From Bryobacteraceae bacterium (lineage in GTDB: Bacteria; Acidobacteriota; Terriglobia; Bryobacterales; Bryobacteraceae): a stretch of 64,000 nucleotides of DNA. The DNA lies in contig JAIEMJ010000038.1 of assembly GCA_019752335.1 (NCBI GenBank), positions 1-64,000 of the forward strand, in the 5' to 3' direction. The notes beneath the pieces are model-generated. The model made no database searches. It had not been told where the DNA came from and was given only the letters and a program-made list of their open reading frames with translations. Shown piece after piece: positions 5,042-34,145 of the stretch. Each line of letters opens with the position of its first letter. The first letter of the stretch is position 1. Position numbers and translations under genes: made by a program.

Positions 5042-6505
5042 ATGCGCTTCGTCCTGCTACCGCTCCTGGCCACCACTCTGCTGGCCGACGAGTGGACGGT
5101 CTTTCGCATCGGCCCCTTCGAAGCCATCACCCAGAACGAGCAGAAGAGCGCCCGCGCCGTCCTCAACCACGTCGAGCAACTGCGGCATACGCTCGGGCAA
5201 GCGCTCGGCCAGCCGGAACTGAAGTCCCGCTGGCCGATTCGCCTCACCGTGGGCGGCAAAGTCACCACGGACCTCGTCATTGACCGTGACGCCTACACCG
5301 CCACCATCGCCAAGAACACGCCCGTCCCGGACCAGTGGAATCGCGCCCTGGCCGGCATCTTCCTCAATGACTCGGTCGCCCGCATGCCGGAGAAGTTCGA
5401 GCGCGGCCTGATCGAGTTCTTCAGCACGCTGAACGTCGAAGGCGTCCGCGTCATCGGCGGAGCCGCGCCCCCCCGGCCCAGCCTCGATTGGGCCCGCGTC
5501 GATCTGCTCATGGTGAGCGACAAGTACCGCGGCCGCTTGCGCACGCTGCTATTTAATCTGCAAAAAGGCAACGCGCCGGAGCCCTCCTATAAGAACGCCT
5601 TCGAACGCACCGAAGCCGAGATCGAGACCGAAGCGAAAGCCTGGCTGGCCGCCGGTAATTTCCCCACCACCTCCCTCAACGCCAAGCCCATCGCCCCCGA
5701 CCGCGACTTCCTCGCCCGGCCCTGGAATCCCTTGAAGAAGACGGAATCCGCCATGGACGCCTTTGACCGCGGCGACTACGCCGCCGCCGTCCGCATCAAG
5801 CCGGACTGGCCCGCCGCCAAAGTGAAGCTAGCCGAATCCGCGTCCGAAGCCGACAAAATCCGCCTCCTGCGCGAGGCCGCCACCGAGGCGCAGCGCAATC
5901 CCGACTACTGGCGCCTGCTCGCCGAAACCCTGGCCGCCTCGCGCGAGTATGGCGAATCCTACAAAGCCTGGGGCGCCGCCGAACGCGCCGCCCGCGACGA
6001 CGCGGAACGAGCCAAAATGCGCACCGCACGCTTAGCCCTCGAAAATGCCAAGCTCGACTTCGAGGACGCCGAACGTCAGCGCAAGAAGGACGAAGCCGCC
6101 CGCGACCTGGAGCGCGTCAAGAACGACTCGCTGCGCAGCATCCGTATGGCGGAGGCCAAGGCCAATGAGTCGCTCGCCGGTGGTGACAGTGGTGGTGAGT
6201 CCGTCAAGCCGGTCCCCTGGTGGGACGACCCTAAGAATGAGCGGACCGCCACCGGCGATCTGGAACGCGTCGAATGCGCCCAAGGCCGCATGACTCTGGT
6301 CCTGCGCGACACCGCCAAAAAGCTCTCCCGCATCACCCTTCCCTCGGACTCCTCTCGACTGAAACTCCGCGGCCAAGAGGGCACCACCCTCGTCTGCGGT
6401 CCACTCCCCAAACCCCTCCCGCTCAAAGTGGTGTACGCCGTCCCCCCGAAACCGTCAGCGGGCGTCCTGGGAGAAGCGTCCTCCATTGAGTTTGTACAAA
6501 AATAG
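5042..6505 (+). CDS. Secreted protein with TPR-like C-terminal half
   Basis: 487 residues from the ATG at 5042, which has a good ribosome site (TGGAGG) and opens with a signal peptide (MRFVLLPLLATTLLADE). The N-terminal half is a globular domain of a type often found in secreted Acidobacteriota proteins. From about residue 230 the chain is helix-rich and Ala/Glu-rich, with TPR-like spacing and a coiled-coil stretch (NAKLDFEDAERQRKKDEAAR). The last 90 residues look beta-rich. I do not recognise a named family. It is divergent from the ABC operon and is followed 1 nt later by the MFS gene. Confidence 0.75.
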   Translation: MRFVLLPLLATTLLADEWTVFRIGPFEAITQNEQKSARAVLNHVEQLRHTLGQALGQPELKSRWPIRLTVGGKVTTDLVIDRDAYTATIAKNTPVPDQWNRALAGIFLNDSVARMPEKFERGLIEFFSTLNVEGVRVIGGAAPPRPSLDWARVDLLMVSDKYRGRLRTLLFNLQKGNAPEPSYKNAFERTEAEIETEAKAWLAAGNFPTTSLNAKPIAPDRDFLARPWNPLKKTESAMDAFDRGDYAAAVRIKPDWPAAKVKLAESASEADKIRLLREAATEAQRNPDYWRLLAETLAASREYGESYKAWGAAERAARDDAERAKMRTARLALENAKLDFEDAERQRKKDEAARDLERVKNDSLRSIRMAEAKANESLAGGDSGGESVKPVPWWDDPKNERTATGDLERVECAQGRMTLVLRDTAKKLSRITLPSDSSRLKLRGQEGTTLVCGPLPKPLPLKVVYAVPPKPSAGVLGEASSIEFVQK

Positions 6506-6506
6506 A

Positions 6507-7706
6507 ATGAAAAACCGCTGGCTGGTCCTGAGCCTCTTCTACCTCTCCTCCGTCCTCAATTACCTGGATCGCTCGGTGATGGCCGCCCTCTCCCCCCTCC
6601 TAAGACAGGAACTCGGCTTTGACCTCACCCAATACGGTTGGCTACAGGGCATCTTTTCCGCCTTCTACGCCTTCTCCGCCCCCATCGCCGGCCTCCTCGT
6701 CGACCGCTACGGCCTCACCGTCGCCACCGTCAGTGCGGTCGGCTTCTGGAGCGTCGCCGGCATGGCCCGCGGACTCGTCAGCAGCTTCCTGGGCCTGGTC
6801 GGCACCCACACGCTGATGGGCATCGGCGAGTCCGCGGGTATCCCTTCCACCGCCAAGGCCTCGCACCGCTACCTGCGGCCCGAGGAGCGCGCCTACGGTC
6901 CCGCGATGAGCCAGGTAGGCCTCTGCATCGGCGCTATCGCCGCGCCGACGGCGTTCACCTGGATCGCTGTCACCTTCGGCTGGCGCTGGGCCTTCCTCGT
7001 CCCCGGCGCCCTCGGGCTCCTCTGGATCCCCCTCTGGCTCTGGACCGACAAGAATTCCTACGTCCCCCAAGGCGACCCCGCCCACGTCGACTCGCCCCTC
7101 GCCCCCCGCGCCATGCTGCGTGACCCCTTCCTCTGGGGACTCGCCGTCGGCAACTTCTTCTCCATGGCCACCTTCTCCCTTTGGACCGTCTGGACCACCG
7201 AATACTTCGTCCGCACTTTCGACCTGAAGCTCACCAGCGCCAATTACAACTACGCCTGGGTGCCGCAAGTGATCGCCGGCTTCGGCGCGCTGTCCGGCGC
7301 CTGGTTCTCCAAGCGGCTCGCCTCGCGCGGCCTGGCCCCTTTTGAAGCCCGTCGGCGCACCTGCTTCTTCGCGGCCTTCTTTATGCTCACCACCGGGCTG
7401 GTCCCCTTCGCCACCACGCCGCTGATGGCCATGGTGCTGATCTCCGTGAGCTTCTTCGCCGCCAGCGTCTGGGGCGTGAATTATTACACGCTCCCCGTCG
7501 ACGTCTACGGGCAGGGCCGCACCGGCTTCGCCGTCTCCTTCCTCACGGCTTCGTTTGGCGTCTTCGTCCTGGTCGTCTCGCCGCTGATCGGCGCCATTGC
7601 CCAACGCCAGGGCTTCGCCGTGGTCTGCTATGCGTTTGCCTTTTTCCCGCTGATCGGCTTCGGCGCGATGGAGGTAGGAAGGCGTTGGCGTGCGCGGCTG
7701 GCTTAA
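6507..7706 (+). CDS. MFS transporter, ACS (anion:cation symporter) type
   Basis: 399 residues with about 12 hydrophobic helices. Near the start, SSVLNYLDRSVMAALSPLL is the hallmark of the ACS family (hexuronate, glucarate, phthalate and related organic anions), and the loop GLLVDRYG is the MFS signature between helices 2 and 3. I use the ATG at 6507, as the in-frame TTG at 6486 lies inside the upstream gene. The gene overlaps the glycosyltransferase behind it by 17 nt. A sugar-acid substrate is plausible given the mannonate dehydratase-like gene 14 kb away, but the specificity cannot be read from sequence. Confidence 0.88.
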   Translation: MKNRWLVLSLFYLSSVLNYLDRSVMAALSPLLRQELGFDLTQYGWLQGIFSAFYAFSAPIAGLLVDRYGLTVATVSAVGFWSVAGMARGLVSSFLGLVGTHTLMGIGESAGIPSTAKASHRYLRPEERAYGPAMSQVGLCIGAIAAPTAFTWIAVTFGWRWAFLVPGALGLLWIPLWLWTDKNSYVPQGDPAHVDSPLAPRAMLRDPFLWGLAVGNFFSMATFSLWTVWTTEYFVRTFDLKLTSANYNYAWVPQVIAGFGALSGAWFSKRLASRGLAPFEARRRTCFFAAFFMLTTGLVPFATTPLMAMVLISVSFFAASVWGVNYYTLPVDVYGQGRTGFAVSFLTASFGVFVLVVSPLIGAIAQRQGFAVVCYAFAFFPLIGFGAMEVGRRWRARLA

Positions 7707-9192
7707 GCAAGCCCTATTCGCCCTTCTCGGTAAGGACCCCGAGGGCGTCGTCGTGGTCTGCGACCCCCGCCTGACGGACGAGATGCGCCGCCTGGTGCCG
7801 GATCGCCGCATCCTCCCTTGGCCCGGCCGCTCGCTCCGCCGCTACCGGGTCGCGCAAGTCGCCGTGATGTTCGACGGCCGCTGGCCCGGCCTCCGCGTCT
7901 TCTTCCTCGGCCCGATTCTCGCCTTCCACCCCAACCTCGAGCGCCACCAACTCAGTTGGCGCTGCCCGATCGCTTCGTTGCTATTCGTTCTCGGCACACC
8001 GCTGGATCGCATCTACCTGCGCCCGTGGTGGCTGGGTGGCGGCGAGAAGACCATCCGGCCGCAGGAAGTGACCGTCATCCCCGGACGCCCGCCCGCGCCC
8101 GGCCGGAAACGCATCGGCATCCTGACGCCCTATCTGCCCTACCCCCTGGCCCACGGCGGCGCCGTCCGCATCTTCAACCTGCTCCGCGAAGGCGCCCGCG
8201 ACTTCGACCTCACGCTCTTCGCCTTTGTCGAGGAGCCCGGACCCGTCGCGGCTGGCCCGCTCCCTGATTGGTGCGAGAAGATCATCCTCGTCCCCAAGCC
8301 GCGCTACCGCGAACCCCGCTGGTCCAGTTGGGCACCGCCGGAGGTGGAAGAATACGAGTCCCCCGCCATGCGCCGCGCCCTCGCCGCCCATCCGCTGGAC
8401 CTGCTCCAAGTCGAGTACACCCAACTCGCCCGCTATCCCGGCCACGTCCTCGTCGAGCACGACGTCACGTTCGACCTGCAAAAACAGGTGGAAGCCCAGT
8501 CTCCCACCGTGAGCCATCGCTGGAATCGCTGGCGCTGGGAACGTTTCGAGCGCGCTGCCGTCTCGCGCTTCCCCGCCACGGTCGTCATGTCCGACAAGGA
8601 CCGCGCGCTCCTCGGCCAAGGCACGGTGATTGCCAACGGCGTCGACCTCGAACGCTATCAGCCGTCGCCTGAGCCACCGGGACGCCGCCTGCTCTTCATC
8701 GGCTCCTTCCGCCACTTCCCGAACGTCACCGGCCTGCGCTGGTTCCTCGACGAAGTCTGGCCCCTCCTCGCCGATGTCGACCTCGATATCGTTGCGGGAC
8801 CCCAGCCGGATCTCTACTGGGCGATGCCCTCGCTCCCCCGCATCCAGCAGCACAGCTTTGTCGAGGACGTCCGGCCACTGTACTACCGCGCGAACGTCGT
8901 CATCGTCCCCACCCTGGTCTCGGCCGGCACCAACGTCAAGGTCCTCGAGGCGATGGCCATGGAACGCGCGGTCGTCTCCACGCCCTCCGGCGCCGGCGGC
9001 TTAGGACTGGTGGACGGCGAATCCATCGTCCTCGGAGCGACGCCCCAGGAGTTCGCCTTGGGCATTCTGCGACTCCTCGAAAACGACGCCGAGCGCCATG
9101 CGATCGCGCGCGCAGGCCGCCGGATCGCCCAGGAATCCTTCGGCTGGCAGGCCCTGGGAGAAAGGCAGGCCGCCCTATGGAAGAGCTGCTAA
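7690..9192 (+). CDS. GT4-type glycosyltransferase with N-terminal extension
   Basis: 500 residues. The last 360 residues are a GT-B glycosyltransferase: a donor/acceptor start GILTPYLPYPLAHGGAVRIFNLL near residue 140, then VIANGVDLERY, LLFIGSFRHFPNVTGLRWFL, and the nucleotide-sugar region AGTNVKVLEAMAMERAVVST near 415-435. The first about 135 residues are not a standard GT domain and look like a separate alpha/beta module (VVVVCDPRLTDEMRRLVPD). The start is GTG at 7690, inside the MFS gene. It is cytoplasmic and likely acts in surface polysaccharide or glycolipid synthesis. The acceptor is unknown. Confidence 0.88.
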   Translation: MRGWLKQALFALLGKDPEGVVVVCDPRLTDEMRRLVPDRRILPWPGRSLRRYRVAQVAVMFDGRWPGLRVFFLGPILAFHPNLERHQLSWRCPIASLLFVLGTPLDRIYLRPWWLGGGEKTIRPQEVTVIPGRPPAPGRKRIGILTPYLPYPLAHGGAVRIFNLLREGARDFDLTLFAFVEEPGPVAAGPLPDWCEKIILVPKPRYREPRWSSWAPPEVEEYESPAMRRALAAHPLDLLQVEYTQLARYPGHVLVEHDVTFDLQKQVEAQSPTVSHRWNRWRWERFERAAVSRFPATVVMSDKDRALLGQGTVIANGVDLERYQPSPEPPGRRLLFIGSFRHFPNVTGLRWFLDEVWPLLADVDLDIVAGPQPDLYWAMPSLPRIQQHSFVEDVRPLYYRANVVIVPTLVSAGTNVKVLEAMAMERAVVSTPSGAGGLGLVDGESIVLGATPQEFALGILRLLENDAERHAIARAGRRIAQESFGWQALGERQAALWKSC

Positions 9193-9611
9193 TCCGCCCA
9201 GGCACCGCCGCCGACTTGCCCGCCATCGCCGCCCTGCAGGCCTCCGTCCCCGAAGCGGCGGACTGGCCCGTCGAGGACTACCTGACCTACCACCTGGACT
9301 TGGCCGTACGGGGTGGAGTACTCGCTGGATTCCTCGTCACCCGCCGTCTCACTGACGACGAAGCCGAGATCCTGAATCTGGCCGTGGCGCCCTCGGCGCG
9401 CCGCCAAGGCGTGGCCAGCCAATTACTTGCCGCCGCCTTCGCCCGCTGGCCCGGCGACTGGTTCTTGGAGGTGCGTGAGTTCAACGCCCGAGCGCAGGCT
9501 TGTTACGAGAAAGTGGGGTTCTTCATCGCCGGCCGGCGCCCAAATTATTACTCCGTCACAAATGCAAATTCCCGCGAAGGGGGGATTGTCATGGTCAGAC
9601 GGAAGTGCTAA
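9177..9611 (+). CDS. GNAT N-acetyltransferase, RimI-like
   Basis: 144 residues, the usual length of a single GNAT domain. The acetyl-CoA loop is LNLAVAPSARRQGVASQLL near residues 68-86, with the terminal part EVREFNARAQACYEKVGFFIAGRRPNYY typical of RimI (ribosomal protein N-terminal alanine acetylation). The ATG at 9177 lies 16 nt inside the end of the glycosyltransferase gene, so it is translationally coupled. Ribosomal S18 as substrate is family knowledge only. Many RimI-like proteins have other targets. Confidence 0.85.
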   Translation: MEELLIRPGTAADLPAIAALQASVPEAADWPVEDYLTYHLDLAVRGGVLAGFLVTRRLTDDEAEILNLAVAPSARRQGVASQLLAAAFARWPGDWFLEVREFNARAQACYEKVGFFIAGRRPNYYSVTNANSREGGIVMVRRKC

Positions 9612-9794
9612 TCTGTGATTCCTGATGGCCGTTCGGTGACCGTCAGGGCGTAAGATGATCGCGAATACTTTCCCACCGAGCCCGTCTTCTTTCCGCGTTC
9701 CGCGGCAAAACTCCAACTCTGTTCGGCCGCTCTCGCGCGGAATTGTCCTAAGACGACCCGGCGTGGATTCCTCAGGCAAGGAGAACCACCCTAT

Positions 9795-10025
9795 ATGACA
9801 ATACCTTCACAGGAAGATTTGAAGGCACAATTGATGGCAACGGATGCGGAGTTCGCCAAACTAGCGGCTCAGCATGCGAACTACAAGCAGCAAGTGGCCG
9901 AGTTAGAGGCCAAGGCGGAATTGTCCTCCGCCGAAGAACTTCAGGAGCACGAGCTCAAGAAGTTGAAGCTGCGTTTGAAGGATGAAATGACGGCCATTCT
10001 GAACCGTCATGCGGTGCCCGCTTAG
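9795..10025 (+). CDS. DUF465 (YdcH-like) small coiled-coil protein
   Basis: 76 residues, nearly all helical: FAKLAAQHANYKQQVAELEAKAELSSAEELQEHELKKLKLRLKDEMTAIL. This is the DUF465 pattern of short cytoplasmic coiled-coil proteins with no known activity. A clear ribosome site (AAGGAGA at 9778-9784) sets the ATG. It stands alone: about 180 nt of untranslated sequence lies before it, with an imperfect hairpin near 9630-9650, and a strong terminator follows. Confidence 0.88.
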   Translation: MTIPSQEDLKAQLMATDAEFAKLAAQHANYKQQVAELEAKAELSSAEELQEHELKKLKLRLKDEMTAILNRHAVPA

Positions 10026-10054
10026 CCCATCCGTTGCCAGATCGCTTTGGTAAA

Positions 10055-10084
10055 AAAAGCCCGGCCTGTTCAGGCCGGGCTTTT
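10055..10084. terminator. Intrinsic terminator, bidirectional
   Basis: Stem aaaagcccggcctg/caggccgggctttt around a short loop, flanked by A and T runs on the two sides, so it can work in both directions. It closes the DUF465 unit and insulates the TonB receptor gene behind it. Confidence 0.92.
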
Positions 10085-10110
10085 CCCTTTCGCTGGGGCC
10101 GAAAATCGGA

Positions 10111-10116
10111 TATAGT
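10111..10116 (+). promoter_or_regulatory. -10 box, near-leaderless start for the TonB receptor
   Basis: TATAGT lies 9 nt before the ATG at 10126, and no Shine-Dalgarno sequence is present. Transcription would start about 3 nt before the ATG. No good -35 is visible. Confidence 0.5.
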
Positions 10117-10125
10117 ATCGACATC

Positions 10126-13100
10126 ATGCTTCAGACTGTTCGTCTCTTCCTTCTTGTCTCGCTCGTCGCCACCACGAGCCTGTGGTCGCAAGCCGTCAAC
10201 GGTACAATCGTCGGCACCATCGCCGACGCCACGGGCGCCTTGGTAGCCAACGCCAAGGTCACCGCCCTCGAAACCAACACGAATTTCACCCGCTCGCTAC
10301 AGTCCACGGAGTCGGGAACCTACACCTTCTCCAACATGCCTCCCGGCTTGTACACCATCTCCGTTGAACTCGCCGGCTTCCGCAAGTCAGTGCGGGAAAA
10401 GGTGGAGGTCACCATTAACTCCACCAACCGCGTGGACTTCCAACTCCAACCCGGACAGATCTCCGAGCAGATCGAGGTCACCGCCGAGCTTCCCATTCTC
10501 CAGACGGACCGCACCGACACCGGCCGTTCCATGGATCAACGCCAGGTATCCGAATTGCCCTTAACCCAGAACCGCAATTTTCAGGGCCTCGTCAATCTGG
10601 TGCCCGGAGCGGCGCGCGCGCAGCGCAATCACTCCGAATTCTTCAACTCGAATGACTCCATGCAGTCCCGCGTCAACGGACAGTCCCGCCTGGCCAATAA
10701 CATTCAGTTCGAAGGCGTCGACAATAACCATCGCACCGGTTTGTTAACCGCTTACATTCCGCCCGCCGAAGCCATTCAGACGGTCGACATCACCACCTCG
10801 AATTACGACGCCGAAATGGGCCGCGCGGGCGGCGCCGTGATGAATGTCACCATCAAGTCCGGCACTAATGATTTCCATGGCAGCCTCTACGAATTCAATC
10901 GCGTCAGCCGTCTGGCCGCTCGCCGCACGGACTTACTCGTCAAGCCGCCCATCACTTACAACTACTTCGGCGGCACTTTCGGCGGCGCCATCGTCAAGAA
11001 CAAAACGTTCTTCTTCGGCGACTACCTCGGTATCCGGGACCGTCTGGGCAAAGGCCATCGCGTCAACATTCCCACCACCGCTTTCCGCGCCGGCGACCTC
11101 TCACAATCGCCCACTACGATTTACGATCCGCGCACCGGCAACCCCGATGGCACGAACCGCCTGCCGTTCGCGGGCAACATCATTCCTACCGCGCAGATCT
11201 CTTCCATCGCCGCCCGCCTCAACGCCCTCATTCCCGCGCCCACCTCGGCCAACGTCACCGGCGTCAACTTCGAAGGCTCCACCGTCCGCGCCAAGGACAC
11301 CAACGGCTTCGATGCTAAGGTCGACCACAACTTCAACGAGAATACCCGCGTCAGCGTGCGTTACTCCTTCCAGCGCCCTCGCCTCACCGATCCGCCGTTG
11401 TACGGCGCCCCGGGCGGCCCGGCCAACGGCGGCTTTGGCGGCACCGGCATCACCAAGACTCACACCGCCGGACTCAACGCCACCCGCGTCCTGTCGCCGA
11501 CGTTGATTACCGAATTTCGCGTCGGTCTGATGCGCTACCGCAACGACGCCTACGCCACGGACTACGGCACCGCCGCCTCCGACGCCGTCGGCATTCGTGG
11601 CGTGAACATCTCTGATCTCACCTCTGGCCTCACCAATATCGACATCCAAGGCTATTCGAGTCCCGCCGTCGGCTATTCGCTTTCCTTGCCTTGGATCCGC
11701 TTCGAAACCAACTGGAACTTCATCAACAACTGGACGAAGAATCAGGGCAAGCACACCATCAAGTTCGGCGCCGACTACCGCTTCAACCGTGACGGACTTC
11801 TGCAAACGCAAGTCTATTCGCTGCGCGGCCAGTATCGCTTCCGCTCCGGCCAGACCGGCCGCAACGGCGACCCGAACCAGGGCTTCGCCAACGCCTACGC
11901 CGCCTTCCTGCTCGACCAACCCAACGACTATGGCCGCGACCTGCTTTCGGCCTTTCCCGAATATGTCCAGCGCCCGCTCTTTACCTATGTGCAGGATAAA
12001 TGGCAGGTCTCGAAGAAACTCACCATCGACATGGGCGTTCGTCACGAACTCTATCCGCCGGCCACGCCGCGCTTGAAAGGCGGCTTCTCCAACTATGACC
12101 TCGATACGAACTCCCTCATCGTTGCCGGTGTCGGTAATAATCCCCGCAACCTCGGCCGTAAGAATTACCTCACCAACTTCGCTCCGCGTTTCGGCATCAG
12201 TTACCGTTTGAACGAAAAGACGGTCATTCGCTCGGGTTACGGCTTGAGCTTCATTCCCTTCGCGAATAACTCCTACGCTTACAATTTCCCCGTCCGGCAG
12301 AACAACGCGTTTAACTCGGCGAATTCATTCGTCGCCGCCGGCCGCATGGCCGACGGACTCCCCGCGCCCCTTCCTTTCAACGTTCCCGCGGACGGCATCA
12401 TCCGCAACGCGCCCAATCAGAATTACGATGTGATTCCGCTCAACTACCGCGAGGGCTACATCCAGAGCTACAACCTGGCCATCCAGCGTGCGCTCCCCGC
12501 GAAGTTCACCTTGGACGTGGCCTTCGTCGGCAATAAAGGCACCCGCATTCCCACGGTCTTTAACGCCAACCCAGGTCTGGTCCTCGGCGCTGGCCGCGCC
12601 GGCCGTCCGTTGTGGTCGAAGTTCAACCGCGACACGGACACCAACCTGAGCTTCGTCGGCACCTCGAACCGCTACAACTCGATGCAGGTCAAGTTCGACC
12701 GCCGCTTCTCCGGCGGCTTCTCGATGACCACCGCTTACACCTGGTCCAAGGCCATCGACATCTCGAACGACAACGGCGGTTTCGCTTACTACATCAATCC
12801 GGAGCGCTCGCGCGCCGTCGCCGACTTTGACCGCCGCCACATGTTCAACCAGAGCTACATCTGGGAACTGCCCTTCGGCAAGGGGAAACCCTTCGCCACC
12901 TCCGGCATGGCCAGCCAGATCCTCGGCGGCTGGCAGATCACCAGCTTGCTGACCTTGATGAGTGGCCAGGCGATGAACATTTCTGCCCCCGGCGCCACCC
13001 TCAACGCTCCCGGCAATAACAACAACCCCAACTACATCGGACCCGGCGGCTTGCCCACCCCCGGCGCCATCAACTTCCGCGCCACTGGCCGGAACCAGCC

Positions 13101-26272: not shown

Positions 26273-26530
26273 ATGACGAAATGCGAACGCACTTATGAGC
26301 TGGCGCGGCCGCTCGACGAAGCCCTCTTGGAGCAGGTGAACTCGCTGCTGGGCATCCACGGCATTCAGAAACTGCGCGTCGCTCCACAACTGGACGCCAT
26401 CACCGTAGGCTGGGACGCGGCGCGGCTTTCGATTCCGCAGATGGAGAGCTTGCTCGCGCAGCGCGGCTTCGCGCTGAAGCCGTTCGTGCCGCCCGCCCCG
26501 CCGCCCAAGCCTGAGCCGGTCAGCGCATGA
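26273..26530 (+). CDS. Small protein, possible HMA-like fold, unknown function
   Basis: 85 residues between the trmJ-like gene and nadE. LLEQVNSLLGIHGIQKLRVAPQLDAITVGWDAARLSIPQMESLLAQRGF has the beta-alpha-beta spacing of heavy-metal-associated-like (HMA) domains but lacks the metal-binding CxxC. The C-terminus is proline-rich (PPAPPPKPEPVSA). The stop overlaps the nadE start (ATGA), so it is co-translated with nadE. No function can be assigned. Confidence 0.7.
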   Translation: MTKCERTYELARPLDEALLEQVNSLLGIHGIQKLRVAPQLDAITVGWDAARLSIPQMESLLAQRGFALKPFVPPAPPPKPEPVSA

Positions 26531-28158
26531 TTGTTGCCCTAGCCCAATTCAATCCCACGGTGGGCGCCCTCGCGGCCAACGCGGACCGCATGGCCGCGAT
26601 GGCCCGCGACGCGGCCGCGCGCGGCGCCGATATCGTGGCTTTTCCCGAGTTAGCCATCTGCGGTTACCCCCCGCGCGACTTACTCGAAAAAGCCAGCTTC
26701 GTGGATGGCTGCGCGCGCGAAGTGGCCCGCTTGGCCGAGATCACGCGGGACCTGCCGCTGGCCATCATCGTCGGTACGGTCGCCCGCAATCCCCGCGCCC
26801 TCGGTAAGCAACTCGCCAACGCCGCGCAGGTGTTGTCCGCCGGAGAGATCGTTTTCGAGCAGCGGAAAATGCTGCTGCCCACTTACGACGTTTTCGACGA
26901 AAGCCGTTACTTCGTCCCCGGCGACAAACAAACCATCTGGGAATACCGCGGACGCAAAATCGCGTTAACCATCTGCGAAGATGCCTGGAACGACAAACAA
27001 TATTGGGACCGTCCGCTCTACACGCGCGATCCCGTAGCTGAGTTAGCCGCCGCCGGCGCCGAGTTACTCATCTCCATCAATGGCTCTCCGTATCACTACG
27101 GCAAGCGGGCGCAACGCCGCGAAATGTTCGCCGCCTTGGCCGCGCATCACCGCATGCCGGTTTACTACGTGAATCAATCCGGCGGGAACGATCAGTTAGT
27201 CTTCGATGGCTCCAGCTTCGCGCTGGAGGCCGACGGCCGCGAAATTGCGGCCGCCGTCTCGTTCGCGGAAGACCTGGTGCTGCCCGGCGATCATCGAGCC
27301 AATCTCGCCAACGAAACCGAAGCGGTTTACGACGCCCTGGTGTTGGGCACCCGCGACTACATCGGCAAGTGCGGCTTCAAGAAAGTGCTCATCGGCCTCT
27401 CCGGCGGGATTGACTCGTCGATCACCGCGGCCATCGCCGTCGATGCCGTCGGCGCCGCGAACGTCATCGGCGTTTCGATGCCGGGACCCTACTCGTCTGA
27501 CCATTCGCTCACCGACGCCCGTGAGATGGCCCAGCGCCTCGGCATACGGTATGAGGTATCGCCCATCACGGAAGTCTGTGCGACTTTTGAGAAAGTCTTG
27601 GAGCCCTTGTTTGCGGGCTATGCGCGCGACGTGACCGAGGAGAACCTCCAGGCACGTTTGCGCGGAGTGACCCTCATGGCGCTCTCGAATAAGTTCGGCG
27701 CCATGGTACTCACCACCGGCAACAAGAGCGAACTCGCCGTCGGCTACTGCACCCTGTACGGCGATATGTGCGGCGGACTGGCCGTCATCAGCGACGTACC
27801 AAAAACGCTCGTCTACCAGATCTCCCGCGTCGCCAATCAACGCCATCCGGGCGCGATTCCCGAAAACGTCTTTATCAAGCCCCCTTCCGCCGAGCTGCGC
27901 CCGGACCAAAAAGACTCGGACTCCTTGCCCGAGTACGATACGCTCGATGCGATTCTGAAGGGCTATGTGGAAGAAAGCCAGAGCCCGGCCACGATTGCCT
28001 CCGCGCTCAACTTACCGCTCGCCCTGGTCCGCGACATCGCCAATAAGGTGGATCGCAATGAGTATAAGCGGCAGCAGGCGGCGCCGGGTTTGAAGGTTAC
28101 CACGAAGGCCTTCGGCATCGGCCGCCGTTTCCCGATCGCGCAGAGATTCTCGGAGTGA
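26527..28158 (+). CDS. nadE: Glutamine-dependent NAD+ synthetase
   Basis: 543 residues. The N-terminal nitrilase-type glutaminase carries FPELAICGYPPRDLLEK (Glu), the Lys in EQRKMLLPTYDVFDE, and the Cys in LTICEDAW. The C-terminal synthetase domain has the ATP loop GLSGGIDSSITAAIA near residue 292 and TGNKSELAVGYCTLYGD near 398-414, then KPPSAELRPDQKDSDSLPEYD. The enzyme amidates deamido-NAD with glutamine. It is co-translated with the gene before it and overlaps the MATE gene by 4 nt. Confidence 0.96.
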   Translation: MIVALAQFNPTVGALAANADRMAAMARDAAARGADIVAFPELAICGYPPRDLLEKASFVDGCAREVARLAEITRDLPLAIIVGTVARNPRALGKQLANAAQVLSAGEIVFEQRKMLLPTYDVFDESRYFVPGDKQTIWEYRGRKIALTICEDAWNDKQYWDRPLYTRDPVAELAAAGAELLISINGSPYHYGKRAQRREMFAALAAHHRMPVYYVNQSGGNDQLVFDGSSFALEADGREIAAAVSFAEDLVLPGDHRANLANETEAVYDALVLGTRDYIGKCGFKKVLIGLSGGIDSSITAAIAVDAVGAANVIGVSMPGPYSSDHSLTDAREMAQRLGIRYEVSPITEVCATFEKVLEPLFAGYARDVTEENLQARLRGVTLMALSNKFGAMVLTTGNKSELAVGYCTLYGDMCGGLAVISDVPKTLVYQISRVANQRHPGAIPENVFIKPPSAELRPDQKDSDSLPEYDTLDAILKGYVEESQSPATIASALNLPLALVRDIANKVDRNEYKRQQAAPGLKVTTKAFGIGRRFPIAQRFSE

Positions 28159-29540
28159 GTAAGTTACTCCGCGCGATTGCGGAAAGCCTGCGCGGTGGCC
28201 ATCATGACTACACCACCGGCTCGTTGACTCGCGCCATTTTCCTGCTTTCCCTGCCGATGGTGCTGGAAATGGCGATGGAGAGTTTATTCGTTGTCGTCGA
28301 CATTTTCTGGGTGGCGCACCTCGGCGAAAATGCGATCTCCACTGTGGGACTTACCGAAGCGATGTTCTCCATCGTCTTCGCCGCCGCCATGGGACTCAGT
28401 GCCGCCGCCACGGCCACCGTGGCTCGCCGCATTGGTGAGAAGAATCCCTCGGCCGCCAGCCACGCGGGTGCGCAGTCGATCCTGCTCGGCATTGCCGTCT
28501 CGCTTTGCTTCGCCGTCCCCGGAGCCATCTGGGGCGGGGAGTTACTCGCCTGGATGTCCGGCTCAGCCTCGCTGGCAGCTTACGGCGGCAGCTTCACCAA
28601 GATCATGCTGGCCGGTACGCCCGGCGTGGTGCTGCTATTCCTGAACAACGCGATCTTCCGGGGCGCGGGCAACGCTACCATCGCCATGCACGCGCTGTGG
28701 CTGGCCAATGCCTGCAACATGATTCTCGATCCTCTCTTCATCTTCGGCTGGGGACCCGTCCCCGCCATGGGCGTCACCGGCGCGGCGATCGCCACCACCA
28801 CCGGCCGTTCCATCGGCGCGCTGTATGGCTTCTGGCGGCTCTACGAAGGCCGCGGCGAGCTAAAGCTCCGCGGCGAACACTTCCATTGGGACGGACCGCT
28901 GATGCGCCAATTGGCCGGCATTGCCGCGCCGGCCGGCTTTCAGTATCTGGTGCCCACCGCGAGTTGGCTCGGACTGATGCGCATCGTCGCCGTCTTTGGC
29001 GGCGCGGCCACCGCGGGCTACACCATCGCCATTCGCATCATCGTCTTCGTCCTGCTGCCCGCTTGGGGACTCTCGAACGCCGCCGCGACGCTGGTGGGCC
29101 AGAATCTCGGCGCGAAGCAACCGGAGCGCGCGGAGAAAAGCGTCATCGCGTGCGGCCTCTACAATATGGCTTTTCTGGTAACGGTGTCCCTGGGCTTGAT
29201 TTTCTTCGCCGAGCCGTTAGTGCGGTTGTTTACGCAAGAAGACGCCGTGGTACGTGTCGCCGTCGAGTGCCTGCGCATTCTCAGCTATGGTTACGGCTTC
29301 TACGCGTGGGGCATGGTGTTGATCCAGGCCTTCAACGGCGCGGGCGACACGCGGATTCCCACGCTGGTAAACTTTGGTTGTTACTGGCTGTTTCAATTGC
29401 CGCTCGCTTATGCTTGGGCCAATTGGTGGGGCGGCGGTCCGTCGGGAGTCTTCTGGGCCGTGCCCATGGCGGAGTTACTGCTGGCGTTGGTCGCCTACGT
29501 GCTTTTCCGGCGCGGCGGCTGGAAACTGACGGTAGTGTAA
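28155..29540 (+). CDS. MATE family efflux transporter
   Basis: 461 residues with about 12 helices in two related halves: LSLPMVLEMAMESLFVVVDIFWVAHLGENAISTVGL near 32-70 begins the first, and IAAPAGFQYLVPTASWLGLMRIVAVFGG the second. It is of the NorM/DinF-related type that exports cations or drugs using Na+ or H+. The start is GTG at 28155, overlapping the nadE stop. The next gene, the radical SAM selenoprotein, begins 1 nt after its stop, so the two may serve the same metabolite. That is inference. Confidence 0.92.
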   Translation: MSKLLRAIAESLRGGHHDYTTGSLTRAIFLLSLPMVLEMAMESLFVVVDIFWVAHLGENAISTVGLTEAMFSIVFAAAMGLSAAATATVARRIGEKNPSAASHAGAQSILLGIAVSLCFAVPGAIWGGELLAWMSGSASLAAYGGSFTKIMLAGTPGVVLLFLNNAIFRGAGNATIAMHALWLANACNMILDPLFIFGWGPVPAMGVTGAAIATTTGRSIGALYGFWRLYEGRGELKLRGEHFHWDGPLMRQLAGIAAPAGFQYLVPTASWLGLMRIVAVFGGAATAGYTIAIRIIVFVLLPAWGLSNAAATLVGQNLGAKQPERAEKSVIACGLYNMAFLVTVSLGLIFFAEPLVRLFTQEDAVVRVAVECLRILSYGYGFYAWGMVLIQAFNGAGDTRIPTLVNFGCYWLFQLPLAYAWANWWGGGPSGVFWAVPMAELLLALVAYVLFRRGGWKLTVV

Positions 29541-29541
29541 G

Positions 29542-30861
29542 ATGCGCGTCCTTCTCGTCAACACCTATGACCTCGGCCATCAGCCCTTCGGCTTGGCGTC
29601 GCCAGCGGCTTGGCTGGCACGCGCGGGCCACACGGTAGTCTGCGCGGACTTGGCCGTCGAGCCGATGCCCAACGCCCGCTTCGACCGCGTCGCCTTCCAT
29701 CTGCCGATGCACACCGCCACGCGCCTGGCGGCCCCGTTGATCGAGCAACTGCGCGGCCAAGCCCGCATCGCTTGCTATGGCCTCTACGCCCCGCTCAACG
29801 CCGAGTATCTGCGCTCCTTGGGCGCCGAAGCCATCATCGGCGGCGAGTTTGAAGCCGCCTTAGTCGATTGGGTAAACGGCCACGTCGTGGCCGAGAAACA
29901 CCTGGACCGCCTGGAGTTTATCGCGCCACAACGCCAGTTACTGCCCGTGCTCGATCGCTACGCCAAGTTACAAGTCAACGGCGAGTCGCGCACGGTCGGC
30001 TACACCGAAGCCAGCCGGGGCTGCAAACATCTTTGCCGCCATTGTCCCGTGGTGCCCGTCTATGAGGGCCGCTTTCGTGTCGTACCGGTCGAAGTCGTAT
30101 TGCAGGATATCCGCCAACAAGTGGCGGCCGGCGCCCGCCACATCACCTTCGGCGACCCTGACTTCTGGAACGGCCCCACGCACGCCCGGCGCATCGTGCA
30201 GTACTTGCACGCCGAGTTTCCGGCTCTGACTTACGATGTCACCATCAAGGTCGAGCACTTACTCGCCCATCGCGACTTACTCGCAGAATTGAAAGCCACC
30301 GGCTGCCTGATGGTCACCAGCGCCGTCGAGTCGCTCGACGACGCGGTCTTACAGCGCCTCGAAAAAGGGCACACCCGCGCCGATTTCGAACTCGCCGTCG
30401 ACTTACTCCGCGCCGCCGGACTCACCCTGGCCCCCACCTTTATCGCCTTCACGCCCTGGACGACGCGCGCCAGCTACCTCGACTTACTCCGCACGCTGGC
30501 TGGGCTCGACTTAGTCGAAAACGTCGCCCCCGTGCAACTAGCCTTGCGGCTCCTCATCCCCTCTGGATCACGCCTGCTGGAATTGTCCGAAGTGCGGGAG
30601 TTGCTTACCGGCTACGATCAGCAAGCGCTCCTGCATCGCTGGCAACACCCCGATCCCGCCATCGACGAACTCGCGGCGGCGGCGATTCGCCTGGCCGGAA
30701 AGAAGCGTTCGCGCCAGGAGGGATTCGCCGCACTCTGGCAACTAGCCGGAGGAGGCGAGTACACCACGCCGGCCTTACCGGCCCGCGCCTCCATCCCCTA
30801 TCTCGACGAGCCCTGGTACTGTTGAGCGGAGCCGACCGACGGCCAGTTGGCTGTCTTATAG
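29542..30861 (+). CDS. Radical SAM selenoprotein, CUAEP-tail family
   Basis: 439 residues when the TGA at 30823-30825 is read as selenocysteine (residue 428). Residues 1-130 form a B12-binding-like Rossmann part (MRVLLVNTYDLGHQPFGLASPAAWL). The radical SAM cluster is C161xxxC165xxC168 in ASRGCKHLCRHCPVVP. After PYLDEPWYC the frame continues as Sec-AEPTDGQLAVL to TAG at 30859. WYC-U-AEP is the tail for which this family of (seleno)proteins is named, with some members having Cys in place of Sec. A hairpin begins 5 nt after the UGA. The function of the family is unknown. Ending the gene at the UGA would remove the conserved tail. The SelA/B/D machinery is not in this window. Confidence 0.87.
30830..30852 (+). 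promoter_or_regulatory. Candidate bacterial SECIS hairpin
   Basis: AGCCGAC (30830-30836) pairs with GTTGGCT (30846-30852), 7 bp including one G-U, closing a 9-nt loop CGACGGCCA. It begins 5 nt after the UGA at 30823, and the loop G residues lie about 13-17 nt after it, the place expected for SelB binding. Confidence 0.65.
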
Positions 30862-32363: not shown

Positions 32364-34145
32364 ATGAAGCTCACTCTCTTCCTGTCGCTCGTGGGTGCCA
32401 CCTTGGCCGCCGGGCAGACCATTTCACCGCACGTCACGTCACCCAGAGCCGGAAAAACGGCCAGCGTCATCGTCCAGTATCGCCCGTCCGATCCGGAAAC
32501 GTTCCAGGCGAAGGTCCGCTCGTTAGGCCGTTCGGCCAAGCAGGTCCACGGCGAACTCGGTTTGGTGAGCGTCGAGGCGACGGCGCAGGACCTGGAGGCA
32601 CTCGCCGCCGACCCGAACGTCGAATACGTCTCGCCGGACCATGCGGTGCAGAGCACGCAGGCCGTGAGCGCAACGCTGGCCAATCAGAGCAGCATTGAAT
32701 TTGCCCGCCGGGCCGCCGGCACGCAGCAGTTACTCACCAGCGGCTTTACGGGCCAGAGCATTGGCGTCGCGGTGATCGACAGCGGCGTGAACGATCAGCC
32801 GGACCTGCGCGACGGCGGCATCCGGGTCGTTTTTTCGCAGACCTTCGTCGGCGGCGCCGCGACGGACGCCTATGGCCACGGCACACATGTGGCCGGCATC
32901 ATCGCCGGCAACGGCGCCATGTCCACGGGCACCGGTAACACCTCCACCATCGCCGGTATCGCGCCGAGGGTGAATATCGTCAACTTGAAGGTATTGAACG
33001 ACACGGGCATCGGCTCGGACACGTCGGTGATCGCCGGCATCAACCGCGCGATCGAGTTGCGGACGCGGTTCAACATTCGCATCATCAACCTCTCCCTGGG
33101 GCGTCCGGTGTTTGAGAGCTTCCGGCGCGATCCATTGTGCCGGGCCGTGGAAGCGGCTTGGCGCGCGGGCATCGTGGTGGTGGTGGCCGCGGGCAACAAC
33201 GGCCGCGACAATACGTTCGGCACGAATGGCTATGGCACGATTGGCGTGCCGGGTAACAGCCCGTTTGTGATCACGGTGGGCGCGATGAAGACGCAGGGTA
33301 CGATTTCGCGCGGCGACGATGAAATTGCCACCTACAGTTCGAAGGGTCCCTCGCTGATTGACCGCATCGTGAAGCCGGACCTAGTCGCACCGGGCAATCA
33401 GATCGTCTCCGTCATGGCGGCGAACAACTTTCTCGCCACCAACTTTCCCAGCACGCGGGTGATGCGCTCCAGCTATCAAGGCAACCTGAAGGCCGATAGT
33501 CTCTCGGCGGACTACTTTACGTTGAGCGGCACCAGCATGGCGACGCCGATGGTGAGCGCGGCGGCCGCGATGCTGTTGCAGCGCGACAGCACGCTGACGC
33601 CGGACCAAGTGAAGAGCCGTTTGATGCGGACTGCATCGAAGACTTTCCGCACCAACACCTCCTTCATGGACATGGCCACTTGCCAGACCTTTACCGCACA
33701 GTATGACCTCTTCACGGTAGGCGCCGGTTACCTGGACGTGAACGCCGCGATGGCGAACAACCATAAGTCGACGCGCATGGCGATCTCGCCCTACGTGGTT
33801 TACGATGCCGCGACGCGGCGGGTGATTCTGAAGTACGACACGATTGCCGGCACCAACGTGGTGTGGGGCGAGAATGTCGTTTGGGGCACGAACATCGTGT
33901 GGGGCGAAAATGTCGTGTGGGGCGAGAATATTGTCTGGGGTGAGAACGTCGTTTGGGGAGAAAGCACGACCACGGGCTTCAACGTGGTGTGGGGTGAATC
34001 CTCGCCGAACAGCACGTCAGTCGCCGGTGCGCGTAATATTTCGCCGGTGAGCATCCTTACGTCGGGCGAACCAAACTCGACGATGGGCAGCTCTGATTTA
34101 CCCGGGATGAGCCGAGCCTGCTCCGGACCGAGCCTTCAGCAGTAA
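32364..34145 (+). CDS. Secreted S8 (subtilisin) protease with NVVWGE repeats
   Basis: 593 residues: signal peptide (1-17), an inhibitor_I9-like propeptide near 32-95 (VIVQYRPSDPETFQAKV), and a peptidase S8 domain with D139 (AVIDSGVN), H172 (GHGTHVAG), the oxyanion Asn in AAGNNG near 276-280, and S391 (LSGTSMATP). After the catalytic domain (about 465) comes a tail in which NVVWGE-type hexapeptides are repeated six times in a row (498-533) with a seventh at 540-545, then a Ser/Asn-rich end. Such WG repeat tails occur in other Acidobacteriota subtilases and may serve surface or complex attachment. Confidence 0.94.
   Translation: MKLTLFLSLVGATLAAGQTISPHVTSPRAGKTASVIVQYRPSDPETFQAKVRSLGRSAKQVHGELGLVSVEATAQDLEALAADPNVEYVSPDHAVQSTQAVSATLANQSSIEFARRAAGTQQLLTSGFTGQSIGVAVIDSGVNDQPDLRDGGIRVVFSQTFVGGAATDAYGHGTHVAGIIAGNGAMSTGTGNTSTIAGIAPRVNIVNLKVLNDTGIGSDTSVIAGINRAIELRTRFNIRIINLSLGRPVFESFRRDPLCRAVEAAWRAGIVVVVAAGNNGRDNTFGTNGYGTIGVPGNSPFVITVGAMKTQGTISRGDDEIATYSSKGPSLIDRIVKPDLVAPGNQIVSVMAANNFLATNFPSTRVMRSSYQGNLKADSLSADYFTLSGTSMATPMVSAAAAMLLQRDSTLTPDQVKSRLMRTASKTFRTNTSFMDMATCQTFTAQYDLFTVGAGYLDVNAAMANNHKSTRMAISPYVVYDAATRRVILKYDTIAGTNVVWGENVVWGTNIVWGENVVWGENIVWGENVVWGESTTTGFNVVWGESSPNSTSVAGARNISPVSILTSGEPNSTMGSSDLPGMSRACSGPSLQQ
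33855..33962 (+). repeat. 18-bp tandem repeat coding NVVWGE
   Basis: Six tandem 18-bp units (consensus aacgtcgtntggggcgag) within the S8 protease gene. One unit has GT in place of GE, and Ile alternates with Val in the second residue. A seventh unit follows after a 6-codon spacer at about 33981. Base changes between units are mostly silent, so protein-level selection is likely. Confidence 0.9.

What the first reader, a model, noticed from the sequence alone, without database searches (positions are those of the whole stretch)
29542..30861. Radical SAM selenoprotein missed by standard gene calls
Seen: the frame reaches ...PYLDEPWYC, a TGA at 30823, and then stays open as AEPTDGQLAVL to a TAG at 30859. 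The tail WYC-U-AEP matches the conserved C-terminus for which the CUAEP/CCAEP-tail radical SAM (seleno)protein family is named. A 7-bp hairpin starts 5 nt after the UGA with G residues in its loop. Known: the family has no assigned function. Inferred: Sec-428 next to C427 forms a C-U redox pair at the tail, used by or on the radical SAM enzyme (C161, C165, C168), and the adjacent MATE gene may export the product. The organism must then have SelA, SelB, SelD and tRNA-Sec elsewhere.
Basis: partly seen in the sequence, partly recalled or inferred. Interest (0 to 1): 0.85.

Follow-up and report, generated by a model that had tools for sequence, protein, structure and literature searches.

The report
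Selenium enzyme with a ligase partner
A soil-bacterium gene that seems to end at a stop codon very probably reads through it to insert selenocysteine near its end, giving a radical enzyme of a known but uncharacterised family that nearly always occurs with one particular amino-acid-joining enzyme, so the pair may make an undiscovered small molecule.

Summary
Window 29542-30861, read with UGA as selenocysteine, is a 439-aa member of NCBIfam NF040546, the CUAEP/CCAEP-tail radical SAM (seleno)proteins (605 bits, cut-off 500). The genome has tRNA-Sec, SelA, SelB and SelD. In homologues the UGA aligns with Cys; the hairpin behind it is complete in 88 of 102 distinct Sec-type but 4 of 30 Cys-type sequences. 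It starts 12 nt, not 5, after the UGA.

(1) The nearest characterised family is ArsL, reported to transfer an aminocarboxypropyl group from SAM to arsenic; the C-U pair aligns with the CC of ArsL's RCCLKC tail. (2) An ATP-grasp L-amino-acid ligase occurs in 63 of 65 carrier genomes of the window's phylum (67 of 396 overall) and 95 of 99 of a second phylum (126 of 400 overall). It is often the next gene, but lies on another contig in this genome.

Best reading: an ArsL-like transferase whose Cys-Sec tail holds or activates a soft acceptor, the ligase making a peptide. The acceptor is unknown and no chemistry was tested. The MATE neighbour is not conserved.

The parts
29542..30822 (+). Codons 1-427 of the radical SAM selenoprotein: alternating strand-helix N-terminal domain (presumed Rossmann-like) and radical SAM core
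   Evidence: AlphaFold2 model mean pLDDT 93.9, pTM 0.92; fold nearest AprD4, MgmA, OxsB, TsrM
30022..30045 (+). CxxxCxxC motif (C161, C165, C168), presumed ligands of the SAM-binding [4Fe-4S] cluster
   Evidence: Invariant in 33 of 33 and 59 of 59 aligned members and in 4 of 4 ArsL-family proteins
30823..30825 (+). UGA codon read as selenocysteine 428, next to Cys427
   Evidence: Cys codon at this place in 10 of 57 and 21 of 78 homologues with the C-X pair; Sec machinery present in the genome
30826..30858 (+). C-terminal tail AEPTDGQLAVL; the part kept also in Cys forms is W[YF]C[UC][AS]EP
30838..30855 (+). SECIS-like hairpin: 7-bp stem, loop AGUU with G in the second position, 19 nt from UGA to loop
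   Evidence: constraints of the bacterial SECIS model as printed in PMC13188914
30859..30861 (+). TAG, end of the extended frame
28155..29540 (+). MATE efflux transporter ending 1 nt before the radical SAM gene; a neighbour, not shown to belong
   Evidence: TIGR00797 247.7 bits, cut-off 147.4; no homologue in the stretches held around 60 and 80 related loci

Best explanation
The gene encodes a selenocysteine-containing CUAEP-tail radical SAM enzyme (shown by sequence comparison, not at the protein level; I put it at about 0.95). It is one half of a two-gene pathway whose other half is an ATP-grasp L-amino-acid ligase (supported by co-occurrence in two phyla and frequent adjacency; about 0.9). 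The most likely chemistry, inferred from its being the closest relative of ArsL among the models searched, is non-canonical cleavage of SAM and transfer of the 3-amino-3-carboxypropyl group to a soft heteroatom acceptor, which the C-terminal Cys-Sec pair holds or activates near the cluster; the product is a gamma-substituted 2-aminobutyrate (inferred; about 0.5). The ligase would then join this amino acid to another to give a dipeptide (inferred from its LAL_C2 and ATP-grasp domains). Selenium tunes the enzyme but is not its substrate, because Cys forms persist in genomes in which SelA and SelD were not found. What exports the product varies or is unknown.
For: Family score 605 bits against a cut-off of 500; the family model matches 0 of 14 control genomes. 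Sec machinery over the curated cut-offs: tRNA-Sec 69.1 bits against 47, called tRNA-SeC with anticodon tca by ARAGORN, SelB 375.6 against 242.25, SelA 468.4 against 267.9, SelD 350.1 against 125, itself with an in-frame UGA. Sec/Cys pairing and hairpin contrast. selA in 47 of 47 examined Sec-form genomes but 5 of 10 Cys-form ones. ArsL kinship: the window scores 256 bits on the ArsL model and 41 on the next family; two ArsL-family proteins score 336 and 366 bits on the CUAEP model and 57 and 75 on the next; 49 positions are conserved in at least 95% of 79 CUAEP rows and in all 4 ArsL rows, C427 and C428 among them. Ligase: 63 of 65 carriers, 67 of 396 genomes overall, expected overlap 11; 95 of 99 carriers, 126 of 400 overall, expected 31; next gene downstream on the same strand in 36 of 67 named loci with room. 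ATP-grasp genes also sit in 3 of the 4 ArsL-family plasmid regions viewed, of 16 such records listed (not 54). Four Cys-form genomes without selA or selD matches keep the pair.
Against: No chemistry was tested. The window protein falls below the ArsL cut-off (256 of 450 bits) and has another tail; the alignment of the two tails rests on MAFFT alone across long gaps, as the BLAST and model alignments end near residue 380. Genes of ArsL clusters are nearly absent around CUAEP loci: 1 ArsM-like and 1 ArsC-like hit in 141 stretches at E 1e-12, so the acceptor need not be arsenic, and without arsenic the analogy is weaker. The ligases of the ArsL clusters are only 23-29% identical to the CUAEP partner ligases, and their LAL_C2 scores are below the Pfam cut-off or absent. 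Carriers without the ligase: 2 of 65 and 4 of 99, and 1 of 5 further genomes, that of Solirubrobacter taibaiensis (L186); the viewed 17-kb region of the Thermomicrobium roseum plasmid has no annotated ATP-grasp gene. Ligase without the radical SAM gene: 4 of 67 and 31 of 126 genomes. The co-occurrence P values ignore phylogeny. The closest solved folds, AprD4 and MgmA, do other chemistry.
Confidence: 0.55

Rival explanations
1. The Cys-Sec pair is a redox couple (selenenyl-sulfide) that reduces substrate or enzyme during conventional 5'-deoxyadenosyl radical chemistry on an unknown small molecule; the ligase acts on the product.
For: Vicinal Cys-Sec pairs often serve redox chemistry (recalled). 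The fold is closest to AprD4, a radical SAM diol dehydratase (Z 28.7), and to MgmA (Z 27.1). Sec and Cys interchange many times, at least 16 changes on a quick tree, which fits a rate-tuning redox residue.
Against: Sequence kinship is far stronger with ArsL than with AprD4 (256 against 29 bits), and ArsL has a Cys-Cys pair aligned at the same place.
Confidence: 0.25
2. It is an arsenic enzyme like ArsL: it makes the 2-amino-4-arsonobutyrate skeleton from arsenite, and the ligase turns it into an arsenic-containing dipeptide.
For: Closest to ArsL; ArsL-family clusters of Priestia, Alicyclobacillus and Pantoea also hold an ATP-grasp gene; vicinal thiol/selenol pairs bind As(III) well (recalled); arsenite methyltransferase selenoproteins are listed in PMC13188914 (passage).
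Against: With 13 proteins of ArsL clusters as queries (E 1e-12) only 2 of 141 stretches around CUAEP loci gave a hit, whereas ArsM or ArsR is annotated in all 4 ArsL-family regions viewed.
Confidence: 0.2
3. The UGA is a genuine stop and the conserved-looking tail is chance.
For: The hairpin of this sequence alone is weak (z -0.39 to -1.65).
Against: The tail recurs in 132 distinct sequences, 30 of them with Cys in place of UGA; the hairpin goes with UGA; full Sec machinery.
Confidence: 0.02
4. Selenium itself (selenophosphate or selenide) is the acceptor, and the product is a seleno-amino acid.
For: Association with Sec machinery in most carriers (59 of 65 genomes have selA).
Against: Four Cys-form genomes, 97-99% complete, have the radical SAM gene and the ligase but no selA match at E 1e-40 and no selD match at E 1e-20.
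Confidence: 0.03
5. The CUAEP tail is itself a peptide substrate or scaffold on which the ligase or the radical enzyme acts.
For: W[YF]C[UC][AS]EP is kept in Sec and Cys forms alike while the residues after it vary; ATP-grasp enzymes can act on peptides (recalled).
Against: The partner's domains are those of ligases for free amino acids, and its best solved relative is BL00235, which makes Met-Gly and Met-Met (PMC6920838, passages). ArsL has a Cys-rich C-terminus and acts on a small molecule.
Confidence: 0.05

Closest known systems
NCBIfam NF040546, CUAEP/CCAEP-tail radical SAM (seleno)protein
   Same: Match to positions 1-467 of 468 of the model, 605 bits over a cut-off of 500; Cys-Sec tail; radical SAM core
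   Different: Nothing defining; a member. The model's name assigns no function.
ArsL, arsinothricin biosynthesis radical SAM enzyme (NF040542)
   Same: 31% identity over 412 columns with the Pseudomonas protein; 49 shared conserved positions and a vicinal Cys pair at the C-terminus; ATP-grasp gene near 3 of 4 ArsL-family genes viewed (not 54)
   Different: 256 bits against a cut-off of 450; tail CUAEP instead of RCCLKC; almost no arsenic genes around
AprD4, MgmA, OxsB, TsrM (B12-type radical SAM folds)
   Same: Fold over most of the chain: Z 28.7, 27.1, 26.1, 24.9 with 356-399 aligned residues
   Different: 17-20% identity in those alignments; other chemistry; no B12-binding Pfam match in the window protein at E 0.001
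L-amino-acid ligases BL00235 and BacD (for the partner)
   Same: ATP-grasp_4 and LAL_C2 domains above cut-off; best PDB match 3VOT (BL00235), E 3.8e-37
   Different: Substrates of the partner are unknown; BL00235 makes Met-Gly and Met-Met (PMC6920838, passages)

Membership tests
CUAEP/CCAEP-tail radical SAM (seleno)protein NF040546 | Score above the curated cut-off (500 bits) | tested here: met
   605.5 bits with the tail, 585.6 without
CUAEP/CCAEP-tail radical SAM (seleno)protein NF040546 | C-terminal C[UC]AEP tail | tested here: met
   WYC-UGA-AEP, as in homologues
CUAEP/CCAEP-tail radical SAM (seleno)protein NF040546 | CxxxCxxC radical SAM motif | tested here: met
   C161, C165, C168 invariant; PF04055 49 bits, cut-off 29.5
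Selenoprotein | Sec machinery in the same genome | tested here: met
   all over the curated cut-offs. Weak hits are unspecific: at E 0.001 the tRNA-Sec, SelB and SelD searches ring in 14 of 14 control genomes (over the cut-off in 5, 2 and 2), SelA in 4 (over in 1)
Selenoprotein | Downstream hairpin: 3-9 nt loop, 4-16 bp stem, G in the first two loop positions, 16-37 nt from UGA (model in PMC13188914) | tested here: met
   Loop 4 nt AGUU, stem 7 bp, 19 nt; goes with UGA in relatives (weaker)
Selenoprotein | Selenium in the protein | not testable with these tools
   Needs 75Se labelling or mass spectrometry
ArsL NF040542 | Score above the curated cut-off (450 bits) | tested here: not met
   256.4 bits
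ArsL NF040542 | RCCLKC C-terminus | tested here: not met
   Tail is WYCUAEPTDGQLAVL; only the vicinal pair aligns
ArsL NF040542 | Arsenic gene neighbourhood | tested here: not met
   No hit in window 20001-42000 and hits in 2 of 141 stretches in all; the rest of the genome was not searched for ars genes
ArsL NF040542 | Aminocarboxypropyl transfer to As(III) | not testable with these tools
   Biochemistry needed
B12-dependent radical SAM enzymes | Cobalamin-binding N-terminal domain | tested here: inconclusive
   Fold matches B12-type enzymes over most of the chain but no PF02310 match at E 0.001
L-amino-acid ligase (partner, G000 contig C17, L113:8381-9598) | ATP-grasp and LAL_C2 domains above cut-off | tested here: met
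   113.6 bits (cut-off 27) and 52.7 bits (cut-off 29.4)
L-amino-acid ligase (partner, G000 contig C17, L113:8381-9598) | Dipeptide formation | not testable with these tools
   Biochemistry needed

The most novel reading that the evidence does not exclude
A widespread, overlooked two-gene pathway (radical SAM carriers: 65 of 396 genomes sampled from the window's phylum, 99 of 400 from a second phylum) makes an unknown dipeptide that carries a heteroatom-substituted 2-aminobutyrate: an ArsL-type selenoenzyme transfers the aminocarboxypropyl group of SAM to an acceptor held by a C-terminal thiol-selenol clamp, and a dedicated amino-acid ligase couples the product. The acceptor is something other than arsenic in most carriers.
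Probability: 0.4. Interest if true: 0.82.

Novelty: new member of a known kind. Interest (0 to 1): 0.6.

Why it matters
NF040546 has no assigned function in its name, and I found no paper naming it in the held library (terms 'CUAEP' and 'NF040546'; two likely papers are not held). Its pairing with one amino-acid ligase in two phyla, and its closeness to ArsL, turn 'unknown selenoprotein' into a concrete question: which amino acid does it make from SAM, and which peptide follows? If the ArsL-type chemistry holds, it would be an aminocarboxypropyl-transfer radical SAM family with a selenocysteine beside ArsL and Dph2, and a pointer to a soil metabolite that I did not find described.

Tried and rejected
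Rejected: a true stop at UGA; selenium as substrate; the MATE neighbour as dedicated exporter (0 of 60 and 0 of 80 loci at E 1e-10). A POT peptide transporter is near 19 of 60 and 4 of 80 loci, but a gene for a DNA-ligase-D phosphoesterase domain is conserved at many of the same loci, so this may be mere gene-order conservation within one group. Nfu/NifU-type genes sit near part of the second clade, again possibly lineage synteny.

Led nowhere: Rfam on the 3' region (three matches with E 0.45-0.69, taken as chance); promoter/terminator scan (1 promoter-like site against 1.2 in shuffles, 6 terminator-like against 5.5; the one + strand terminator-like site overlaps the SECIS hairpin); PDB sequence searches found only distant relatives. 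First neighbour clustering was spoilt by long antisense ORFs in GC-rich DNA, so neighbours were counted by tblastn. A translation of SelD on the wrong strand was repeated correctly. No coordinates of the model are in the Python box, so the tail-to-cluster distance was not measured. Literature: 'CUAEP' and 'NF040546' 0 papers; ATP-grasp + radical SAM + selenocysteine, 2 papers seen as listing only; three of ATP-grasp/arsenic/radical SAM/aminocarboxypropyl, 4 papers seen as listing only. Two papers by Haft on new selenoprotein families are not held and may mention this family.

Results that weaken the picture: in 70 loci of the second phylum (50 Sec, 20 Cys) all six stem pairs can form in 27 of 48 assessable Sec rows and 3 of 20 Cys rows, although the start range allowed was wider than. 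Those 70 were chosen mostly for having an in-frame TGA, so their Sec:Cys ratio means nothing. The named loci were found with two patterns of which one includes the tail with Cys codons, so their ratio is biased too. Four Cys rows of 30 do allow the full hairpin. Rows dropped: 4 of the 65 carrier genomes were not fetched (G080, G099, G128, G295); 4 of 61 examined loci have no tail motif (L099, L102, L103, L104; the last two at contig ends); rows shorter than 36 nt, with N, or identical were dropped.

Full report
1. What is there. Window 29542-30822 encodes 427 residues up to a TGA at 30823; the frame stays open for AEPTDGQLAVL to TAG at 30859. A standard ORF listing gives the 427-residue product, so the gene is shortened by 12 codons rather than missed. 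Read with TGA as Sec, the protein matches NCBIfam NF040546 (model positions 1-467 of 468) at 605.5 bits (cut-off 500); the truncated product scores 585.6. The CxxxCxxC cysteines 161, 165, 168 and the pair 427-428 (Sec shown as Cys) are invariant in both alignments (33 rows; 59 rows).

2. Selenocysteine. The genome (G000, 7.2 Mb, 55 contigs, 97.25% complete; the window is on contig C10) has tRNA-Sec (69.1 bits, cut-off 47; ARAGORN: tRNA-SeC, anticodon tca), SelB, SelA and SelD, each with one match well over the curated cut-off (tRNA-Sec has a second place just at its cut-off). The controls show that weak matches mean little: at E 0.001 the tRNA-Sec, SelB and SelD searches ring in all 14 control genomes, over the cut-off in 5, 2 and 2; SelA in 4, over in 1. 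SelD has its own in-frame UGA in the context AAG-U-ASK. The family was found in 65 of 396 genomes of the phylum. I examined 61 of the 65 loci, the window included: 57 have the tail motif, 47 with TGA and 10 with TGC at this codon. All 47 TGA genomes have selA; of the 10 TGC genomes 5 do. G080, also with a TGA but not fetched and 75% complete, has no selA match; with it Fisher's P is 3e-4.

3. Hairpin. In the window: 12 nt after UGA, stem GACGGCC/GGCUGUC (30838-30844/30849-30855), loop AGUU. As a single sequence it is weak (z -0.39 to -1.65). Across relatives it is strong: among 132 distinct downstream sequences, six of six stem pairs can form in 88 of 102 Sec rows and 4 of 30 Cys rows; 6.4% of shuffled Sec rows reach six (Fisher P 1.5e-13, relatedness ignored). 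Stem positions change on both sides (for example A-T 61, G-C 18, C-G 4 of 102 at pair 5). In 70 loci of a second phylum the contrast is weaker (27 of 48 against 3 of 20). On a quick tree of 135 family members and 4 ArsL-family rows at least 16 Sec/Cys changes are needed.

4. Nearest kin. After its own family the window protein scores 256 bits on the ArsL model and at most 41 on others. Two ArsL-family proteins from plasmids score 336 and 366 bits on the CUAEP model, next best 57 and 75. Identity with the Pseudomonas ArsL is 31% over 412 columns. Forty-nine positions are conserved in at least 95% of 79 CUAEP rows and in all 4 ArsL rows, with C427 and C428 aligned to the CC of RCCLKC (that part of the alignment spans long gaps and rests on MAFFT alone). 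[quoted passage not shown] 2024, not seen. PMC8552651 names Dph2 as the other such enzyme. The AlphaFold2 model (59 sequences, pLDDT 93.9, pTM 0.92) is closest to AprD4 (Z 28.7, 393 residues, rmsd 3.3), MgmA, OxsB and TsrM.

5. The partner. The neighbour most often kept is an ATP-grasp protein with LAL_C2, the L-amino-acid ligase C-terminal domain. It lies within about 2.5 kb in 42 of 61 phylum loci, as next gene downstream on the same strand in 26 (my count from the listing); among named loci with 1.5 kb of downstream sequence it is the next gene on the same strand in 36 of 67 and anywhere in the locus in 45 of 67. In the window it is not adjacent, but the one LAL_C2 match of this genome, on contig C17, is 51% identical to one of the neighbour ligases. 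With that protein as query (E 1e-50), 67 of the same 396 genomes match; 63 of them carry the radical SAM gene (65 in all; expected overlap 11). The two carriers without it, G099 and G335, are 71% and 74% complete. In 400 genomes of the phylum of L191 (titled an Anaerolineae MAG), 99 carry the radical SAM gene and 126 the ligase, 95 both (expected 31). In the first phylum 20 of the 63 genomes with both have them on different contigs. The Fisher tests (1e-65 and 9e-59) ignore phylogeny. Of 5 further carrier genomes reached through named loci 4 have the ligase; Solirubrobacter taibaiensis (L186) has no match at E 1e-30.

6. Independent hint. A plasmid search with the window protein gave 17 records: 1 of the CUAEP family and 16 of the ArsL family. 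I viewed 5. ArsL-family genes of Priestia, Alicyclobacillus and Pantoea sit with an ATP-grasp gene, plus ArsM or ArsR and transporters; the Pseudomonas arsQLM region has none, nor does the Thermomicrobium CUAEP region. Those ligases are 23-29% identical to the CUAEP partners, so this is shared logic, not shown orthology. With 13 other proteins of these clusters as queries, 2 of 141 stretches around CUAEP loci gave a hit.

7. Mechanism. Shown by sequence: Sec-type gene, Sec machinery, tail conservation, hairpin, ligase linkage. Inferred: ACP transfer (from ArsL); tail as clamp or activator of a soft acceptor (from the aligned vicinal pair, and from Cys or Sec standing at either position: one UU and one UC tail); dipeptide formation (from the ligase's domains; best solved relative BL00235, which makes Met-Gly and Met-Met, PMC6920838 passages; a gamma-substituted 2-aminobutyrate would resemble Met). 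Selenium is not the acceptor: G088, G269, G293 and G373 carry the Cys form and the ligase without selA or selD matches; G317 lacks selA and has only a below-cut-off selD-like match.

8. Known or new. The gene is a member of a named family. The reviews PMC13188914 and PMC9312934 (passages) do not mention it under the terms searched. I found no paper on the ligase linkage or the ArsL logic (the last two seen as listings), but the two papers most likely to treat the family are not held.

Noticed in passing
L172 (match 6200-7585; Chloroflexi MAG, JAACFF010000287.1) and L191 (match 9001-10383; Anaerolineae MAG, JAHDWK010000010.1): Tails with Sec codons elsewhere in the pair: WY-TGA-TGA-AEP (two adjacent UGA, six of six stem pairs) and WY-TGA-TGC-AEP (five of six). 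One genome each; none among 70 further loci of L191's phylum.
   Followed up: partly
L198 3635-4858, L200 2436-3668, L201 7461-8777: ATP-grasp genes in ArsL-family (RCCLKC-tail) plasmid clusters of Priestia, Alicyclobacillus and Pantoea, which might mean arsenical peptides.
   Followed up: partly
G000 contig C9 243525-244424 (L114 3526-4425, minus): SelD of the same genome has an in-frame UGA in the context AAG-U-ASK, its presumed catalytic position (position recalled).
   Followed up: partly
window 26527-29540: nadE (named by eye), MATE and the radical SAM gene run in one direction with an overlap and a 1-nt gap, as if one operon; no MATE was found near related loci.
   Followed up: partly
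window 32364-34145: Subtilisin-like ORF (named by eye) with a run of near-identical NVVWGE-type repeats near its C-terminus.
   Followed up: no
L197 6509-10855 (Thermomicrobium roseum plasmid): CUAEP-family gene of a cultured isolate between a PLP aminotransferase and an MFS transporter, without an annotated ATP-grasp gene in the 17 kb viewed; its chromosome was not searched.
   Followed up: no
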